This document shows positions 3,867 to 11,479 of a stretch of DNA of 43,060 bases, piece after piece. How positions within the stretch are numbered: the first letter of the stretch is position 1; each line of letters begins with the position of its first letter. A program made the position numbers and the translations under genes. Origin of the DNA: Bacteroidaceae bacterium (lineage in GTDB: Bacteria > Bacteroidota > Bacteroidia > Bacteroidales > Bacteroidaceae); assembly GCA_017429945.1 (NCBI GenBank), contig JAFRNY010000087.1, forward strand, positions 1-43,060. The letters are read 5' to 3'. A model generated the notes under the pieces. The model had not been told where the DNA came from. It searched no databases and saw nothing but the letters and a program-made list of their open reading frames with translations.

Positions 3867-4697
3867 TTATTTGTGAATCGGCGACTTTGGAATGCGTAGG
3901 CCATTGAAGGTCTTGCCATGGTTGTGGTTGTGCCTGGCGGGCAGCTTGCCAACTGACGTCGGCGTTTGCCAAGCTTGACGTTGAGCAGGGTGCGTATGCG
4001 AGTGCTGGGCCACCCGTGGAGTGTGGGAGTGGCGCTGCGCCTGACTGGCTTTCACCTTACGCTGGAGCATATTGTCAACAGAATAAAGGCGCGAAAGCTG
4101 TTGAGCGTCGAGCACGGCAGCAAACTGCTGTACGTATTTCTGGCGAATGGCAAGGGCTCGCTGCTGCAACTCGAGTTGCTTCTGTAGGTTGGCCGACGCT
4201 TCCTCTACTGTCGTCGGATGCAAAGGGCGCTGATAACCGCCCCAAGCAGCAACCATCTCGGAGGTATAACGACGATATATGGGAGCGAACTCTGTTTTCT
4301 GGGCATCGGTAAGATGCAGGCGCTCGGCCATCTCGCTGACTTTGGCCTCGAAGAAACATTCTGACAGGGAATCGGCGCTCTGCGTCTGTGCTGACGAAAT
4401 TTCATTTATCTCATAGTACTCCAACGAGTCCTTTTCCTGTTCCGACAAACCGTCGAGGAAACGGTCGAGGGGTGAGCTCGCCTCAAGAGATTCAGGCGTA
4501 GCAGCGTTTGGCAGCGGGGAGTCATCTGAAGCATTATCTCGCTGCACACAGAACCATACCAATGCAGCCACCGACAGCACGAGGACTGCGATTGCTGCGC
4601 TCCACCACCATGCACCCAGTCTGCGCTTGCGCTGTTCGGGCGCGGCGGCCGGCGTGGCGGCTTTGGGCTTAGAATGTTTCTTAACGTGATTGTTCAT
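3867..4697 (-). CDS. Spy/CpxP-like single-pass membrane protein with a His-rich tail
   Basis: This protein has about 276 residues. Start chosen at ATG 4697 (MNNHVKKH); the longer frame from 4727 runs into the nqr terminator. A basic N-terminus is followed by one transmembrane helix (about residues 28-52, WWWSAAIAVLVLSVAALVWF). The central part (about 105-190, LHLTDAQKTEFAPIYRRY ... LDAQQLSRLYSVD) matches the LTxxQ helical pattern of Spy/CpxP-type periplasmic proteins. The last 60 residues are rich in His-x-His (HSHTP, HSHTHP, RHNHNHG), suggesting metal binding. Homology is by pattern only. In other Bacteroidota similar proteins sit near sigma/anti-sigma pairs, but none is present here. Confidence 0.6.
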   Translation of the reverse strand: MNNHVKKHSKPKAATPAAAPEQRKRRLGAWWWSAAIAVLVLSVAALVWFCVQRDNASDDSPLPNAATPESLEASSPLDRFLDGLSEQEKDSLEYYEINEISSAQTQSADSLSECFFEAKVSEMAERLHLTDAQKTEFAPIYRRYTSEMVAAWGGYQRPLHPTTVEEASANLQKQLELQQRALAIRQKYVQQFAAVLDAQQLSRLYSVDNMLQRKVKASQAQRHSHTPRVAQHSHTHPAQRQAWQTPTSVGKLPARHNHNHGKTFNGLRIPKSPIHK

Positions 4698-4715
4698 AAC
4701 ATCTGTCGTTTGTAA

Positions 4716-4767
4716 GAAAAAAAGCACTCTACACGCGCCGCCAGAGGCTGGCTGATGTAGAGTGCTT
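4716..4767 (-). terminator. Terminator of the nqr operon
   Basis: On the minus strand, AAGCACTCTACA (4756-4767) pairs perfectly with TGTAGAGTGCTT (4722-4733), giving a 12-bp stem, followed by a run of T (A residues 4716-4723 on the plus strand). It lies 17 bases after the nqrF stop. Confidence 0.92.
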
Positions 4768-4783: not shown

Positions 4784-6073
4784 TTAACCGCCGAAGTTGT
4801 CGAAGCGGATCATCTCATCTTCTACGCCGAGAGAGTGCAGAAGGTCGAGGACGGTCTTGGCCATCATTGGAGGTCCGCAGAGGTAGTACTCGCAGTCCTC
4901 GGGAGCCTCGTGAGCCTTGAGGTAGGTGTCGCCCATGACGGGTGCCACGAAGCCCGGGGTGTACTTCACGCCAGCGGCATCGGCCTTGGGATCGGGACGG
5001 TCGAGGGCGAGGTGGAAGTGGAAGTTGGGGAAGTCCTTCTCGAGCTGCAGGAAGTCGTCGAGGAAAGGAATCTCCTCGAGGGCACGGGCGCCGTAGAAGT
5101 AGTGCATCGGGCGCTGACGGTCCTCATCCTTGACGCCGTGGCCTTTGAGCATGTGCATGATCTGGGCGCGCAGGGGAGCCATACCGGCACCACCGCCGAC
5201 CCATATCATCTCGCGACCTGTGCCGTACTGCGGGCGGAACTCGCCGTAAGGGCCTGACATCGTGACCTTGTCGCCGGGCTTGAGCGAGAAGATGTAGGAG
5301 GAGGCGATACCCGGGTTGACGTCCATGAAGCCGGGGCCTTGATCCTTCGGCTTGAAAGGAGGCGTGGCAATACGCACGTTGAGGGTGATGATGTCGCCCT
5401 CGTCGGGGTAGTTGGCCATGGAGTAAGCGCGGATGGTGGCTTCGGGGTTCTTACACTTGAGGCCGAAGAGTCCGAACTTCTCCCATGCGGGCAGGTAGGT
5501 GTCGCCGATGAGACTCTTGTCGAAGTCCTTGTCGTAGTCGATGCAGTCGAACTGCGGGATACGGATCTGAGCGTAGGAGCCGGGCTCGAAGTCCATGTGC
5601 TCGCCCGGGGGCAGAGCAACCTTGTACTCCTTGATGAAAGTGGCGACGTTGCGGTTGCCGATGACGGTGCACTCCCATTCCTTGACGCCGAGGACGCTGT
5701 CGGGCACCTTGATGCCCAGGTCGCCCTTGACCTTGCACTGGCAGCCGAGGCGCCAGCCTTCCTTGATTTCCTTACGGGTGAAATGGCCTTTCTCGGAGTC
5801 GAGAATCTCGCCGCCGCCCTCTACGACCTGGCATTTGCACTGGCCGCAAGAGCCCTTACCGCCGCAGGCCGAGGGGAGATAGACACCCTCTTGAGCGAGC
5901 GTGGAGAGAAGGCTGGCACCCTGAGGCACGGACAGCTTGTCCTTGCCGTTCATTGTGATGGTGACGTTACCGCTCGGAGAGAGGTAAGCCTTTGCAACAA
6001 GCAGCAGCACGACCAGCACCAGGATGATGGCGAGGAAGACCGCGATGCTTGTGAGAATTAAAGAGGTATTCAT
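4784..6073 (-). CDS. nqrF: Na+-translocating NADH:quinone reductase subunit F
   Basis: This 429-residue subunit is the NADH-oxidising electron entry point of Na+-NQR. One N-terminal transmembrane helix (about 5-27) is followed by a plant-type ferredoxin domain. Cys70, Cys76, Cys79 and Cys111 match the known 2Fe-2S ligands in both spacing and numbering, with further Cys at 81 and 113. The FAD domain has RAYSMAN and GPYGEFR, and the NAD domain has WVGGGAGMAPLRAQ and YLCGPPMM. It is the last gene of the operon, separated from nqrE by a 205-base repeat-filled spacer and followed by a strong terminator. Confidence 0.97.
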   Translation of the reverse strand: MNTSLILTSIAVFLAIILVLVVLLLVAKAYLSPSGNVTITMNGKDKLSVPQGASLLSTLAQEGVYLPSACGGKGSCGQCKCQVVEGGGEILDSEKGHFTRKEIKEGWRLGCQCKVKGDLGIKVPDSVLGVKEWECTVIGNRNVATFIKEYKVALPPGEHMDFEPGSYAQIRIPQFDCIDYDKDFDKSLIGDTYLPAWEKFGLFGLKCKNPEATIRAYSMANYPDEGDIITLNVRIATPPFKPKDQGPGFMDVNPGIASSYIFSLKPGDKVTMSGPYGEFRPQYGTGREMIWVGGGAGMAPLRAQIMHMLKGHGVKDEDRQRPMHYFYGARALEEIPFLDDFLQLEKDFPNFHFHLALDRPDPKADAAGVKYTPGFVAPVMGDTYLKAHEAPEDCEYYLCGPPMMAKTVLDLLHSLGVEDEMIRFDNFGG

Positions 6074-6278: not shown

Positions 6279-6905
6279 TTAGAGATTAAGTCCGCTGAAG
6301 CACATGAAGGCCATGGCCATCAGGCCTACGGTGATGAACGTGATGCCGAGGCCCTGGAGAGGACGGGGCACGTCGGTGTAGGCCATCTTCTCGCGAATGG
6401 CAGCCAGGCAGGTGATGGCCAGCAGCCAGCCGATACCCGAACCGAGGGCGTAGGCCAGAGCGTCCCAGATGCTGGTGATAGCCTGCGAGTTGGTATCGGG
6501 CATGGTCACGCGCTGCTGCATGAAGAGCGAAGCACCCATGATGGCGCAGTTCACGGCGATCAGAGGCAGGAAGATACCGAGGGCGGCATACAGCGACGGG
6601 CTGAAGCGCTCGACGACCATCTCCACGAGCTGCACGATAGCGGCGATGACGGCGATGAAGAGGATGAACGAGAGGAAACTCAAGTCAACACCCTCAACAA
6701 GGCAGTCGGGGCCGAGCACATATTGCTGCAAACAGTAGTCCACGGGAACGGTGATGAGCAGCACGAAGGTGACTGCCACGCCGAGGCCGAGGGCTGTCTT
6801 CACGCTCTTCGACACGGCCAGATAAGAGCACATGCCAAGGAAGAAGGCGAAGATCATATTGTCCACGAAGATTGAGCGGACGAATAGGCTTATTAGATGT
6901 TCCAT
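6279..6905 (-). CDS. nqrE: Na+-translocating NADH:quinone reductase subunit E
   Basis: This is a 208-residue integral membrane subunit with about six helices, paired with NqrD around the intramembrane iron centre. It begins [16 protein letters not shown], the family's usual start, so ATG 6905 is chosen. The open frame continues upstream to 7004 only because the repeat spacer happens to be open. MCSYLAVSK contains the conserved Cys of the first helical repeat, and [17 protein letters not shown] lies in the second half. The ending [15 protein letters not shown] is typical. Confidence 0.96.
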
Positions 6906-7014
6906 AATATTTAAGTGAGTTGACGAGTTATTAGTTGACGAGTTGACGAGTTGTTTCTTATGCTGTCTTAATGGCATCAACTTGTTTACTTGTCTACTTG
7001 TCAACTTGTCTACT
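6906..7014. repeat. nqrD-nqrE spacer with opposed octamer repeats
   Basis: The left part has GTTGACGA and GTTATTA units (6916-6955) and the right part has ACTTGTTT, ACTTGTCT, ACTTGTCA units (about 6979-7014), the same pair of complementary motifs as in the nqrE-nqrF spacer but shorter. Confidence 0.8.
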
Positions 7015-7641
7015 TTAGCTTAATTCTTTATTATATGCCCGATGTGCCCAGATGACACAACCAACGATGATGAGAGACATGGCTGGCATGGTCATCATAC
7101 CATTGTTGACATAGCCGTGATCGTAGCACCACTGCGGAACGACCTGCAGGCCGAAGAGTGTGCCCGAACCGAGCAATTCGCGGAAGAAGGCGACGATGAC
7201 AAGGATGATGGCATAGCCAATACCGTTGCCAATACCGTCGAGGAACGAAGGCCAGGGCTTATTCATCATGGCAAAAGCCTCGAGGCGACCCATGAGAATA
7301 CAGTTGGTGATGATCAGACCTACGTAGACGGACAGCTGAACGCTAACGTCATAGGCGAAGGCCTTGAGCACCTGGCTGACAATAGTCACCAGCGCAGCCA
7401 CCACAACCAACTGAACGATGATACGGATGCGGTTGGGGATGGAGTTACGGATGAGAGAGATAATCAGGTTGGAGAAGGCGGTGATGATGGTCACGCTAAG
7501 ACCCATCACGATGGCAGGCTCAAGCTGAGCCGTGACAGCCAGTGCCGAGCAGATACCGAGCACCTGCACGACGACAGGGTTGTTCAGGTTGAGCGGACTG
7601 GTCAGCGCCTCCATATTTGCTTTAGAAAATAATTGGCTCAT
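7015..7641 (-). CDS. nqrD: Na+-translocating NADH:quinone reductase subunit D
   Basis: This 208-residue membrane subunit has about six helices. Characteristic segments are [21 protein letters not shown] (start of helix 1 with the conserved Cys), [34 protein letters not shown] (conserved Cys in the second inverted repeat) and [22 protein letters not shown]. NqrD and NqrE form the inverted-repeat pair that carries electrons across the membrane. The 42-base spacer to nqrC contains GATTTACGATTTACGATTTA-type short repeats. Confidence 0.96.
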
Positions 7642-7683: not shown

Positions 7684-8790
7684 TTAGCGCTGTCCGCAGC
7701 AAGCCTTGTCGCCGTTGCAACCAGGCTTTCCGCATGAACCACTCTTGTCGCACTGACCGCTCTTGCAGCAGTCGTTGCCGCTCTTGCACTTGTGGGCGCC
7801 TTCGGCAGCCTGCTCGGGGCAACCGCCACAGCCTTCGGCCTTCTCGCAGCCTTCATGCTTGGCGCAGCCTTCAGCCTTGGCGCAGGGAGCAGCCTTCTCG
7901 CACTTGGCGCAGGGGCACTGAGCTTTCTCGGCGCAGGTGCAGTCGGGCTTGTCGCAGCACTTGGCAGCCTGCTTGCAGCAGTCGCCGGCAGGCTGAGCAC
8001 CACCCAGGACATCAGCATACTGCTGGAGGCCTGTGAGCACCATCTCGCCTACGCCCTTTGACGTAAGCGTGGCACCTGTGACACCGTCGACCTGAGTATC
8101 GCCTTCGCTGGCACCTTTCTTAACTACGGTGAGGGCAACCTTGCCATCGCCGCCCATAACTGGACGGCCGATGAACTGTTCCTGGAACTTTGCCTCCTTG
8201 ATGAGGGCACCCAGACCGGCGGTCTCGCTCTCATGGTCGAAGTAAGCGCCGAGCACTTTCTGAAGGTCGGGCGTCACGGCAACGTAACCCCAGAGGCCAC
8301 CCCAAAGACCGCGGCCTTTCAAGGGCAGCACGAGGGCGTCGGAGCCGTCAGCGGTCTTTGCCTTATACACGGGGAGCTTGTCGCCAATCTCCTTGGTCTC
8401 CACATCGAAAGCATCAGCGCCTTCGACGACCTGACCGTCGGGAGTCATCACGCAAGTCTCTTGGATCAATTCGTTGTACTTAGCCTCGACATCGCTCTTG
8501 GCCAGGCCGCGAACGTTGAGTGAAGCCAGTATCTGCTGTTTCTTGTCGATAGCCACATTGGCATCCTGAGCAGGCTTCAGGGCACTGCTGACGAAGGCCA
8601 GGAGGAAAGCTACGAGAATCACCATGACTGCAGCATAGCAGATAGTGTAAACATTGCCATTGGTGTTGATGCCCTTGGATTTCTCTTCCTTGATATGGGA
8701 AGTATCAGCGCCACAGATAGGGCACTTGTCGGGCATTGATGCGGCTTCGAAAGTCTGGCCGCATTGACTGCATATAAATTTCTTTGCCAT
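7684..8790 (-). CDS. nqrC: NqrC with an N-terminal rubredoxin-like domain and a C-terminal Cys-rich tail
   Basis: This 368-residue protein is about 110-120 residues longer than usual NqrC. Residues 1-35 form a rubredoxin-like/zinc-ribbon module with Cys7, Cys10, Cys23 and Cys26 (CSQCG ... KCPICG), resembling the C-terminal domain of rubrerythrins. Residues 48-70 are the transmembrane helix. Residues 75-262 are the periplasmic FMN-binding domain; DGVTGATLTS contains Thr241, the expected site of covalent FMN attachment by ApbE. Residues 267-368 are a low-complexity tail with 22 Cys in 102 residues, many as CC, CxC and EGC repeats, rich in Lys, Gly and Ala, like a metallothionein. The frame is continuous with the conserved NqrC core and ends 42 bases before nqrD. 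The core assignment is certain; the roles of the additions are unknown. Confidence 0.95.
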   Translation of the reverse strand: MAKKFICSQCGQTFEAASMPDKCPICGADTSHIKEEKSKGINTNGNVYTICYAAVMVILVAFLLAFVSSALKPAQDANVAIDKKQQILASLNVRGLAKSDVEAKYNELIQETCVMTPDGQVVEGADAFDVETKEIGDKLPVYKAKTADGSDALVLPLKGRGLWGGLWGYVAVTPDLQKVLGAYFDHESETAGLGALIKEAKFQEQFIGRPVMGGDGKVALTVVKKGASEGDTQVDGVTGATLTSKGVGEMVLTGLQQYADVLGGAQPAGDCCKQAAKCCDKPDCTCAEKAQCPCAKCEKAAPCAKAEGCAKHEGCEKAEGCGGCPEQAAEGAHKCKSGNDCCKSGQCDKSGSCGKPGCNGDKACCGQR

Positions 8791-8795
8791 ATCTG

Positions 8796-9965
8796 TTACT
8801 TGTTTATTGCGCGTTTTGCACGTTTTGAGATGTTACGGCTTACGAAGCAGTAGTCGATCAGCGGAGCGAAGAGGTTCATGAGCAGGATGGCGAGCATCAT
8901 ACCCTCGGGGTAACCAGGGTTGAGGACGCGAACCGTCACAGCCACGAAGCCAATCAGGAAGCCGTAGATCCACTTACCACCTTCGGTGCGGGCCGAGGTG
9001 ACAGGGTCGGTAGCCATGAAGACGGCACCGAAGCAGAAGCCACCGAGGACGATGTGCTGGCAAGCGGTGAGGGGCGACAGGCCGAGGGCATTGTAGCACC
9101 AACCAGTCAGGGCACCGCCTACGAACACGCTCAGCATGGTCTTCCACGAAGCAACACCGGTCCAGAGGAGCAAGCAAGCACCGAGAGCGATAGCGATGAC
9201 TGAGGTCTCACCGATAGAGCCGGGGATGAAACCGCACACCTGATCGCAGAAGCTCGTGGAGAGCGTCGTTGCTCCGGCAGCAATCTCACCCAGGGGCGTA
9301 GCGGCCGAGAACGTGTCAGGCACGTCGAAACCGAGACCGCAAATGGTGTTCTGAGCCACCCACACGGTGTCGTCACCAGTCATGCTGGAGGGGTAAGAGA
9401 AAAATAGGAACGCGCGCGTGATGAGCGCTACGTTGAAGATGTTCATGCCAGTGCCGCCGAAGATCTCCTTGGCGAAGATGACGGCGAAGGCAGTGGCGAT
9501 GGCGAGCATCCACAGCGGAGTGTTCACGGGCACAATCATCGGGATGATGATACCCGATACGAGGAAGCCCTCATGGATCTCCTCGTTCTTCCACTGCGCT
9601 ACGGTGAACTCGATGCCCAGACCTACGATATAGCTTACGATGATCTTAGGCAGCACAGCCAGGAAGCCAAACCAGAACATTCCCCAGAACGAGGCCTGCT
9701 CCAGCTGTCCGGCAGCGAGCGCGTTCTGATAGCCTACGTTGTACATTCCGAAGAGCAACGCAGGCACCAGAGCAATGACAACGAGCGACATGATGCGCTT
9801 GCTGTCGATGGCATCGTGCACATGGGTGCCAACGCGGCCCGACGTGGTGTTGGGCACGAAGGCAAATGTGTCGAAGCCATCATAAAGCGAACGGAAGGCA
9901 TGGAGCTTGCCACCCTCCTCGAAGTTCGGCTTTATCTTGTCGAAAAATTTTCTTAAACTATTCAT
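8796..9965 (-). CDS. nqrB: Na+-translocating NADH:quinone reductase subunit B
   Basis: This 389-residue membrane subunit is related to RnfD and has about ten helices. The N-terminal cytoplasmic segment LRKFFDKIKPNFEEGGKLHAF is typical. DTFSAATPLGEI contains the Thr expected to hold FMN through a phosphoester bond; the usual Gly of the S-G-A-T motif is Ala here. TGWCYNALGLSPLT and FMATDPVTSARTEGGKW are conserved. It lies 5 bases upstream of nqrC, implying coupled translation, and 185 bases downstream of nqrA. Confidence 0.96.
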   Translation of the reverse strand: MNSLRKFFDKIKPNFEEGGKLHAFRSLYDGFDTFAFVPNTTSGRVGTHVHDAIDSKRIMSLVVIALVPALLFGMYNVGYQNALAAGQLEQASFWGMFWFGFLAVLPKIIVSYIVGLGIEFTVAQWKNEEIHEGFLVSGIIIPMIVPVNTPLWMLAIATAFAVIFAKEIFGGTGMNIFNVALITRAFLFFSYPSSMTGDDTVWVAQNTICGLGFDVPDTFSAATPLGEIAAGATTLSTSFCDQVCGFIPGSIGETSVIAIALGACLLLWTGVASWKTMLSVFVGGALTGWCYNALGLSPLTACQHIVLGGFCFGAVFMATDPVTSARTEGGKWIYGFLIGFVAVTVRVLNPGYPEGMMLAILLMNLFAPLIDYCFVSRNISKRAKRAINK

Positions 9966-10150: not shown

Positions 10151-11479
10151 TTAAGCGTTCTCCTTACGCAGGATATCCAGTCCCTCGCGCACGATGCGTT
10201 GAAGTTCAAGCTTTGAACTGTCGACAAACTCAGCGATGGCGAAGTCCTCGGGAGCAACCTCGTAGATGCCGAGAGCCTCCTGACGGTCGATATCACCTGT
10301 GATGATAGCCTTGACGAGATAGCCGGCATAGATGTCCATCGGGAACACGCGGTCGTACTCGCCCGACATGATCATGTGGCGCTCGCCACCCTTGACGCGG
10401 GCATCCATCGTGTACTCGGTCTTCTTCGGGCGCAGCCAGCTGAAATAGCTGCGGCTGGTGGAGAACTCCTTGAAGCGCGGGGCTATCCAACCGAGCATCT
10501 CATAGACATCGTCGCCTTCAGGAATGACGGTGACCTCCGTAGCGTGAGCTGCGAGCCAGCCGTCCTTCGAGGTTTTCACGCCCACCATCGGGTTACCATT
10601 GATGATACGCAGGCTCTTCTGCTCGTCGGTCTGACCTGCGAGAATCGCAGCGAGAGGTGCACCCACGAGGGCCTTGACATACTTAGGAGCCTTCACTTCG
10701 CTGCCGGCAACGGCGATGGTGCGGGTAAGGTCCACCTTACAGGTCAGTGCCAGACGACCTACGAAGATAACCTCCTCGGCGCCCAGCGTCCACACGACTT
10801 CGCCCTTGTTGATGGGATCGACGTGGTTGATCTGAACACCGACGTTGCCTGCAGGAGCGGGACCGTCGAAAACGGTGACGGTGCAGTCCTTGGCTGCCGT
10901 CAGGGCGGGAGCCGTCTGCTTGGCACTGACGCCGAGGTTGACCTTGGCAATCTTGGCGAGCAGCGAGAGACCAGCCTGGAACTCCTTCTCCTGGCCCTTG
11001 AGGACATACTCGAAATCGGCAGCCAGCGGCATACTGTTGAAAGCGCTCACGAAGATAGCCTTGGGCTTGTCCTCGGGATTTGCCACCACGTCGTAGGGAC
11101 GCATGCGGAAGAAACCGAAGAGGCCGCTCTCGAGCAGCAACTTCAGCGGATCCTTCTCGGTGAAGGTAGCTGAATCCTGCTTGCCGTCGGCATCTACGCG
11201 AACGCTCATCACCTTGCGGCGCTCACCGCGCTCCACGAGAGCCACGGTGCCACTGACAGGCGAAACGAACTTCACTTCGGGATGGTTCTTGTCAACGAAC
11301 AAGGCATCCCCGACCTTGACTGTATCACCTTCCTTGACAACGACCTTGGGTTTCACGCCATAAAAATCATCGGGAACCAGTGCATACTGGCCCGACACTT
11401 TCGTCAGCATGGTTTCCAAGCTCGCTTTGCCCGTCAGGTTTACGTCGAGGCCTTTGCGTAACTTGATTACATTTGCCAT
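10151..11479 (-). CDS. nqrA: Na+-translocating NADH:quinone reductase subunit A
   Basis: This 442-residue peripheral cytoplasmic subunit starts MANVIKLRKGLDVNLTGKA, the family's conserved N-terminus. The RnfC-like barrel segment KVKFV..VSGTVALVERGERRKV and a Rossmann-like middle region follow. NqrA contributes to the quinone site near NqrB and carries no iron-sulfur cluster. It is the first gene of the six-gene operon; the likely promoter is 43-50 bases upstream of the start codon. Confidence 0.96.
   Translation of the reverse strand: MANVIKLRKGLDVNLTGKASLETMLTKVSGQYALVPDDFYGVKPKVVVKEGDTVKVGDALFVDKNHPEVKFVSPVSGTVALVERGERRKVMSVRVDADGKQDSATFTEKDPLKLLLESGLFGFFRMRPYDVVANPEDKPKAIFVSAFNSMPLAADFEYVLKGQEKEFQAGLSLLAKIAKVNLGVSAKQTAPALTAAKDCTVTVFDGPAPAGNVGVQINHVDPINKGEVVWTLGAEEVIFVGRLALTCKVDLTRTIAVAGSEVKAPKYVKALVGAPLAAILAGQTDEQKSLRIINGNPMVGVKTSKDGWLAAHATEVTVIPEGDDVYEMLGWIAPRFKEFSTSRSYFSWLRPKKTEYTMDARVKGGERHMIMSGEYDRVFPMDIYAGYLVKAIITGDIDRQEALGIYEVAPEDFAIAEFVDSSKLELQRIVREGLDILRKENA

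What the first reader, a model, noticed from the sequence alone, without database searches (positions are those of the whole stretch)
7684..8790. NqrC with a rubredoxin-like N-terminus and a metallothionein-like C-terminal tail
The NqrC core (transmembrane helix, FMN domain, Thr241 in DGVTGATLTS) is normal. Fused to it are a four-Cys rubredoxin-like domain (Cys7, 10, 23, 26) and a 102-residue tail with 22 Cys (CC, CxC, EGC repeats). By known NqrC topology the N-terminal domain should be cytoplasmic and the tail periplasmic. An additional iron centre on the cytoplasmic side could take or give electrons to the pump; a metal- or thiol-rich tail outside could buffer metals or oxidants. Neither addition is part of the described six-subunit complex. 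The function is inference; the sequence is direct.
Basis: partly seen in the sequence, partly recalled or inferred. Interest (0 to 1): 0.82.

Follow-up and report, generated by a model that had tools for sequence, protein, structure and literature searches.

The report
Sodium-pump subunit with optional cysteine additions
In rumen bacteria related to Prevotella, one subunit of a respiratory sodium pump carries an optional rubredoxin-like domain on its inner end and, in many species, a cysteine-rich tail on its outer end; what they do is untested, but nature offers many with-and-without pairs to find out.

Summary
Confirmed and extended. The 368-aa NqrC lies in a complete nqrABCDEF operon. Its N-terminus is a rubrerythrin-type rubredoxin-like domain (PF21349, 39 bits against a cut-off of 26.5 for the isolated domain); its last 103 residues hold 22 Cys. 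Neither is peculiar to this assembly. Of 118 genus genomes with a complete NqrC core, 73 have the domain, 56 a tail with at least 4 Cys, 38 with at least 10, 33 the domain plus at least 4 Cys, 22 neither. The domain also occurs in nine other genera of the family and in three genomes of two other families. The two additions come and go independently: on well-supported branches alone, at least 11 changes for the domain and 5 for tails with 10 or more Cys. Tails are built from different repeats in different lineages. In the window's clade tail Cys are strongly conserved against amino-acid change (22 against 177 synonymous departures). The domain-bearing 5' end shows exchange between species by recombination. 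Best reading: an optional cytoplasmic Fe(Cys)4 module beside the pump's electron relay, and a periplasmic metal-thiolate tail; metals, electron route and protective role are inference. New variant of a known complex.

The parts
7684..8790 (-). nqrC, 368 aa: rubredoxin-like domain, membrane helix, FMN domain, Cys-rich tail
8671..8790 (-). N-terminal rubrerythrin-type rubredoxin-like domain and linker (residues 1-40); Cys7, 10, 23, 26
   Evidence: PF21349 39 bits; AlphaFold model and Foldseek to rubrerythrin 1ryt
8581..8652 (-). predicted membrane helix (about residues 47-70, start of a modelled helix 47-90)
   Evidence: AlphaFold model; sequence; limits of the membrane part are my estimate
8026..8310 (-). 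FMN-binding domain (residues 161-255) with Thr241 at 8068-8070
   Evidence: PF04205; Thr241 invariant
7687..7995 (-). C-terminal tail, residues 266-368, 22 Cys
   Evidence: Cys conservation; matches in relatives
8796..9965 (-). nqrB
   Evidence: TIGR01937 over cut-off
10151..11479 (-). nqrA
   Evidence: TIGR01936 over cut-off
7015..7641 (-). nqrD, cluster Cys31 and Cys114
   Evidence: TIGR01939 over cut-off; Cys
6279..7004 (-). nqrE (listed from a TTG; the match to the family starts at residue 35), Cys59 and Cys153 in this numbering
   Evidence: TIGR01940 over cut-off; Cys
4784..6073 (-). nqrF, Cys70, 76, 79, 111
   Evidence: TIGR01941 over cut-off; Cys

Best explanation
A working NqrC of a Na+-translocating NADH:quinone oxidoreductase with two optional, independent additions. 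Inside the cell, a rubrerythrin-type rubredoxin-like domain is tethered by the NqrC membrane helix close to where the NqrF ferredoxin domain hands electrons to the NqrD/E cluster; it most likely binds one iron as Fe(Cys)4 and exchanges single electrons between that relay and soluble cytoplasmic partners such as rubrerythrin-type peroxidases. Outside, the Cys-rich tail hangs from the FMN domain in a periplasm in which no DsbA (and, in this genome, no VKOR) was detected, so its thiols can stay reduced and bind soft metal ions, shielding a pump whose kind is inhibited by micromolar Ag+. Shown: the parts, their spread, recurrence, conservation of the tail Cys, and exchange of the 5' module. Inferred: topology in this organism, bound metals, electron route, protective role.
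For: PF21349 match; isolated-domain model closest to rubrerythrin and rubredoxin; all four Cys invariant in 19 aligned domains; canonical form in other genera; 73 of 118 genus genomes have the domain and 56 of 118 a tail with at least 4 Cys; Cys columns 777 of 799 kept, 22 amino-acid against 177 synonymous departures, other columns 686 against 534; different repeats in the same place in several lineages, one in another genus; HEGC 47 times against 0.4 in shuffles in 37 tails; DsbA in 0 of 61 genus genomes, VKOR and DsbA not found in the own genome; Ag+ inhibition of NQR (PMC6560451, passages).
Against: Nothing here shows a bound metal or a redox reaction. Single-sequence search of the domain against PDB sequences ranks tandem zinc fingers above rubrerythrin, through summed weak repeats, and zinc ribbons of MCM proteins appear in the fold search, so Zn is possible. 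The Tyr after the second Cys pair start (CGY) of the canonical form is Gln in the window's clade. The domain is absent in 45 of 118 genus genomes and the tail in most outside the genus, so neither is needed for pumping. CxC and CxxC are depleted against shuffles. Domain and tail show no correlation. The 82%-complete assembly limits the absence of VKOR.
Confidence: 0.4

Rival explanations
1. The N-terminal domain is a structural zinc knuckle that docks or stabilises the pump or a supercomplex; no electron transfer.
For: Zinc-ribbon families score just below the rubrerythrin domain, under their own cut-offs (Zn_ribbon_8 24 bits, cut-off 34.4); MCM zinc ribbons among fold matches; CGY is CGQ in the window's clade.
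Against: Best Pfam and fold matches are rubrerythrin's iron domain; the profile of 19 domains ranks rubredoxins first in the PDB; canonical rubrerythrin form in other genera.
Confidence: 0.33
2. The tail is a neutral low-complexity expansion by slippage that does no harm outside the cell.
For: Length differs by 25 residues between genomes with 99% identical cores; short tandem repeats in the tail DNA (periods 18 and 27); tail absent in 62 of 118 genus genomes by the 4-Cys measure.
Against: Cys columns keep Cys with many synonymous and few amino-acid changes; all 32 rows of the window's clade keep at least 7 tail Cys; Cys-rich tails recur with unrelated repeats.
Confidence: 0.12
3. The tail is a thiol-disulfide or oxidant buffer rather than a metal binder.
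For: 22 Cys with few CxxC-type metal knuckles; periplasmic by inference, where oxidants arrive.
Against: No DsbA in 61 genus genomes, no VKOR in the own genome, so no known partner to form or recycle disulfides; HEGC and other His-containing repeats suit metals better.
Confidence: 0.2
4. Assembly or annotation artefact.
For: The genome is a 92-contig, 82% complete assembly; one relative's gene is split (L031/L158).
Against: Both additions together in 33 of 118 genus genomes and in many separately deposited MAGs; synonymous change at Cys codons.
Confidence: 0.01

Closest known systems
NqrC of Na+-NQR (V. cholerae 8a1u/8evu chain C; Parabacteroides 3lwx; P. bryantii NqrC of 210 aa)
   Same: membrane helix, periplasmic FMN domain, FMN threonine, operon
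   Different: the P. bryantii protein is 210 aa long (PMC6560451, passages), too short for either addition; 3lwx and the Vibrio chains match the core
Rubredoxin-like domain of rubrerythrin (PF21349; 1ryt, 1b71; own genome L002)
   Same: four Cys with CxxC-12-CxxC spacing, predicted fold
   Different: here fused to a membrane-pump subunit, without the di-iron ferritin-like domain
Metallothioneins
   Same: about 21% Cys, no aromatic or I, L, V, M residues
   Different: no match to any Pfam family at E<=10; CxC and CxxC not enriched; attached to a respiratory subunit
HMA4 zinc pump C-terminal extension of plants
   Same: di-Cys-rich metal-binding extension on an ion pump (PMC6255694, start of abstract in the listing)
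   Different: unrelated protein; analogy only

Membership tests
NqrC (Na+-NQR subunit C) | profile match over curated cut-off | tested here: met
   TIGR01938 171.1 bits, cut-off 144
NqrC (Na+-NQR subunit C) | FMN-attachment threonine in the GAT motif | tested here: met
   Thr241 invariant in 47 sequences
NqrC (Na+-NQR subunit C) | complete nqrA-F operon around it | tested here: met
   nqrA, B, D, E, F over cut-offs
NqrC (Na+-NQR subunit C) | covalent FMN and Na+-coupled activity | not testable with these tools
   no experiment
Rubrerythrin-type rubredoxin-like domain (PF21349) | profile match over gathering cut-off | tested here: met
   39 bits against 26.5 for residues 1-39; not listed for the whole protein
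Rubrerythrin-type rubredoxin-like domain (PF21349) | four conserved Cys | tested here: met
   Cys7, 10, 23, 26 invariant in 19 domains
Rubrerythrin-type rubredoxin-like domain (PF21349) | fold | tested here: met
   predicted model: 1ryt first, E 0.0076, rmsd 2.0 over 38 columns; no match under 0.001
Rubrerythrin-type rubredoxin-like domain (PF21349) | one redox-active iron | not testable with these tools
   Zn not excluded
Metallothionein | high Cys, no aromatic residues (recalled criterion) | tested here: met
   22 of 103 Cys, no F, W, Y
Metallothionein | match to a known family | tested here: not met
   0 Pfam families at E<=10; PDB best E 0.74, a theraphotoxin
Metallothionein | CxC and CxxC motifs prominent (recalled criterion) | tested here: not met
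   CxC 120 against 158 and CxxC 56 against 123 in shuffles
Metallothionein | stoichiometric metal-thiolate binding | not testable with these tools
   no experiment

The most novel reading that the evidence does not exclude
A Na+-pumping NADH:quinone oxidoreductase with an exchangeable electron side-branch: an Fe(Cys)4 module on the cytoplasmic end of the moving NqrC helix draws electrons from the NqrF to NqrD/E relay for rubrerythrin-type peroxidases (or injects them), so that lineages which acquire the module by recombination turn the pump into an oxidant-defence reductase, while a recurrently evolved periplasmic metal-thiolate tail guards the exposed FMN.
Probability: 0.17. Interest if true: 0.85.

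Novelty: new variant of a known kind. Interest (0 to 1): 0.65.

Why it matters
Na+-NQR is described as a six-subunit machine with a fixed cofactor set. Here a possible further one-electron metal site sits on its moving subunit in ten genera of one family, together with recurrently evolved Cys-rich tails. Close relatives that differ in one addition only (for example L200, L202 and L224) are natural experiments on whether the pump exchanges electrons elsewhere and whether it needs shielding from thiol-reactive metals. It also shows exchange of a module inside a core bioenergetic operon.

Tried and rejected
Viral contigs: 4 stretches matched a pattern, none encodes a relative. Tail against PDB sequences: 3 hits, best E 0.74. 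The gene beside nqrF (3867-4727, His-rich end) as a partner: no match in 8 stretches after nqrC from relatives, one of which ends inside nqrF. Correlation of domain and tail: none. Frameshifted continuation of short tails: in L053, L054, L057 and L058 no Cys-rich continuation in any frame; nqrD follows. Hidden domain upstream of domain-less genes: 0 of 45. A pattern-based Cys count was dropped because the pattern itself demanded Cys; one search replaces it, with the caveat that the aligner favours Cys against Cys. Trees are short 'quick' trees; the minima on well-supported branches are the safer numbers. Rows dropped: one partial gene (L031/L059/L158) from the 89-row tree; two partial cores (L031, L277) of 120; one search left out tails whose gene lacked the FMN-motif pattern, among them the CADCTKEC tails. 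Literature, open-access PMC only: NqrC with rubredoxin (one paper; its passages are unrelated); NqrC with periplasmic and cysteine-rich (none); rubredoxin with Na+-translocating NADH (three, listing only); a six-term search (10 of 1,051 listed, none of the ten with NqrC); further searches. 'Not described' means no more than these.

Full report
OBSERVATION. The ORF at 7684-8790 on the minus strand encodes 368 aa. NCBIfam nqrC scores 171 bits (cut-off 144) and Pfam FMN_bind covers 161-255. nqrA, B, D, E and F lie around it in operon order, each over its NCBIfam cut-off, with Cys for the NqrF and NqrD/E clusters in place (compared with positions given in PMC10739449, passages). Cys 7, 10, 23 and 26 form two CxxC pairs 12 residues apart; residues 266-368 hold 22 Cys and no I, L, V, M, F, W or Y.

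THE N-TERMINAL DOMAIN. The first 39 residues alone match PF21349, the rubrerythrin rubredoxin-like domain, at 39 bits (cut-off 26.5). A scan of the whole protein does not list it, but whole-protein scans of L061 and L074 do, over the cut-off. AlphaFold gives mean pLDDT 85, 87 and 91 for residues 1-10, 11-20 and 21-30. Foldseek of the isolated-domain model ranks rubrerythrin first (1ryt, E 0.0076, rmsd 2.0 over 38 columns), then rubrerythrins and rubredoxins, with MCM zinc ribbons further down; no match is under 0.001. A profile of 19 domains finds rubredoxins first among PDB sequences (E 1e-7); the single sequence ranks tandem zinc fingers first through summed weak repeats, with rubrerythrin at E 0.017-0.03. 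In the own genome the second hit is the N-terminal domain of a rubrerythrin (E 8e-6) and a third is weak (E 0.26). In other genera the NqrC domain has the canonical form CKVCGYxHEGxxAPxxCPxC, 60-66% identical over about 40 residues to ORFs of 187-189 aa in three family genomes, which I take from length and similarity to be rubrerythrins. Capture of the domain from such a gene is the simplest origin (inference).

DISTRIBUTION. Genus: 122 of 139 genomes match NqrC. I read 120 of these 122; the two left out (G053, G101) match at contig starts. 118 of 120 have a complete core. Of 118: domain 73, tail with at least 4 Cys 56, with at least 10 Cys 38, domain plus at least 4 Cys 33, neither 22. Family: 111 of 121 genomes match; in 39 of 111 the match begins at residue 1-4, in ten genera, own included (my count from the rows; those of the 39 that were fetched carry the domain). 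One search adds one more genus, g15 (L147 and L148, read), and a match from residue 2 in g6 that I did not read. Order: 3 of 246 genomes other than the own match at E<=1e-12, in two other families, and carry the domain. Phylum: of 395 genomes 5 match; besides the own genome only G607, seen already, has NqrC with the domain, the other three hits being the 187-189-aa ORFs. Thresholds favour close relatives, so these are lower bounds. One search gave 65 named loci, 55 of them NqrC (L032-L086), mostly MAGs of Prevotellaceae, Bacteroidaceae or Bacteroidales; nearest is Prevotellaceae bacterium UBA4372. Its search patterns favour domain and tail, so I take no frequency from it. Of the ten others (L087-L096) two were tested and are rubrerythrins.

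GAIN AND LOSS. On a tree of 118 cores the domain state needs at least 27 changes (11 on well-supported branches alone), tails with at least 4 Cys 16 (7), with at least 10 Cys 9 (5); domain and tail do not go together. Domain-less genes of the window's clade begin MAK(I/L)NTNSN, others MK or similar, and 0 of 45 have a leftover motif upstream. DNA comparison shows mosaic blocks: window and L037 are 93-100% identical in each 30-base bin from -300 to +240 around the start codon and 66-90% in the bins beyond; with L033 bins from -120 to +150 are 93-100%. Over pairs with 80-90% core identity (223 pairs) codons for unchanged residues agree in 0.78 of cases in the domain and 0.59 in the core. The domain thus seems to spread partly by homologous recombination; constraint on codons near the start could add to this.

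THE TAIL. In the window's clade, 32 of 32 rows carry at least 7 tail Cys, in 34 to 196 residues. The nearest relative has a 99% identical core and a tail 25 residues longer. In an alignment of those 32 tails, 30 columns with Cys majority keep Cys in 777 of 799 cells, with 22 amino-acid and 177 synonymous departures; 102 other columns have 686 and 534. The aligner favours Cys against Cys, so part of the contrast may be its doing. Other lineages have other repeats in the same place: CADCTKECKDGKK (L230, L236, L237), CGQGQ (L232), MAGCPKEDCP (L217), MHEGCPKAEGGCG (L262), and in another genus HEGCTGG (L278). HEGC occurs 47 times in 37 tails with at least 10 Cys, against 0.4 in shuffles; CxC and CxxC are below shuffled expectation. 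In 101 genus genomes each listed match to the window's tail lies in NqrC.

MECHANISM. [quoted passage not shown] The domain should therefore be cytoplasmic near the relay, and the tail periplasmic. VKOR and DsbA were not found in the 82%-complete assembly and DsbA in 0 of 61 genus genomes; the VKOR model found targets in 3 of 14 control genomes and the DsbA model in 9 and 8. Other thiol oxidases were not searched for. Inhibition by micromolar Ag+ is called a hallmark of NQR (PMC6560451, passages). I infer an Fe(Cys)4 electron module inside and a metal-thiolate tail outside; a structural Zn knuckle is the main rival for the domain.

NOVELTY. P. bryantii NqrC has 210 aa (PMC6560451, passages); the main text of the RNF/NQR review holds neither 'rubredoxin' nor 'rubrerythrin'. 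Searches of open-access papers found no description of either addition. I rate it a new variant of a known complex.

Noticed in passing
window 3867-4727 (-): Gene directly downstream of nqrF with a weak LTXXQ match (20.8 bits, under its cut-off of 24.3) and a His-rich C-terminal end; no match in 8 stretches from relatives.
   Followed up: partly
L002:1072-1620 (-): Own genome encodes a 182-aa rubrerythrin with the rubredoxin-like domain at its N-terminus, a candidate source or partner of the NqrC domain.
   Followed up: partly
L037 and L033 against window about 8550-9090: Blocks of near-identical DNA spanning the end of nqrB and the start of nqrC between otherwise more diverged species.
   Followed up: partly
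L031 / L158 (G111): nqrC is split over two ORFs in this relative (first ORF matches to residue 209 only); assembly error or real break not decided.
   Followed up: no
L213, L216, L218, L220, L222, L223 and neighbours: Tails of one subclade, Cys-rich or acidic, end in a shared motif (T/N)(D/N)VEQ or NVEQ even where no Cys remain.
   Followed up: no
L143, L144, L146 (genus g21): NqrC of this genus may carry acidic tails without Cys (VEDYQNIENI-type) where others have Cys-rich ones, while L278 of the same genus has a Cys-rich HEGC repeat tail.
   Followed up: no
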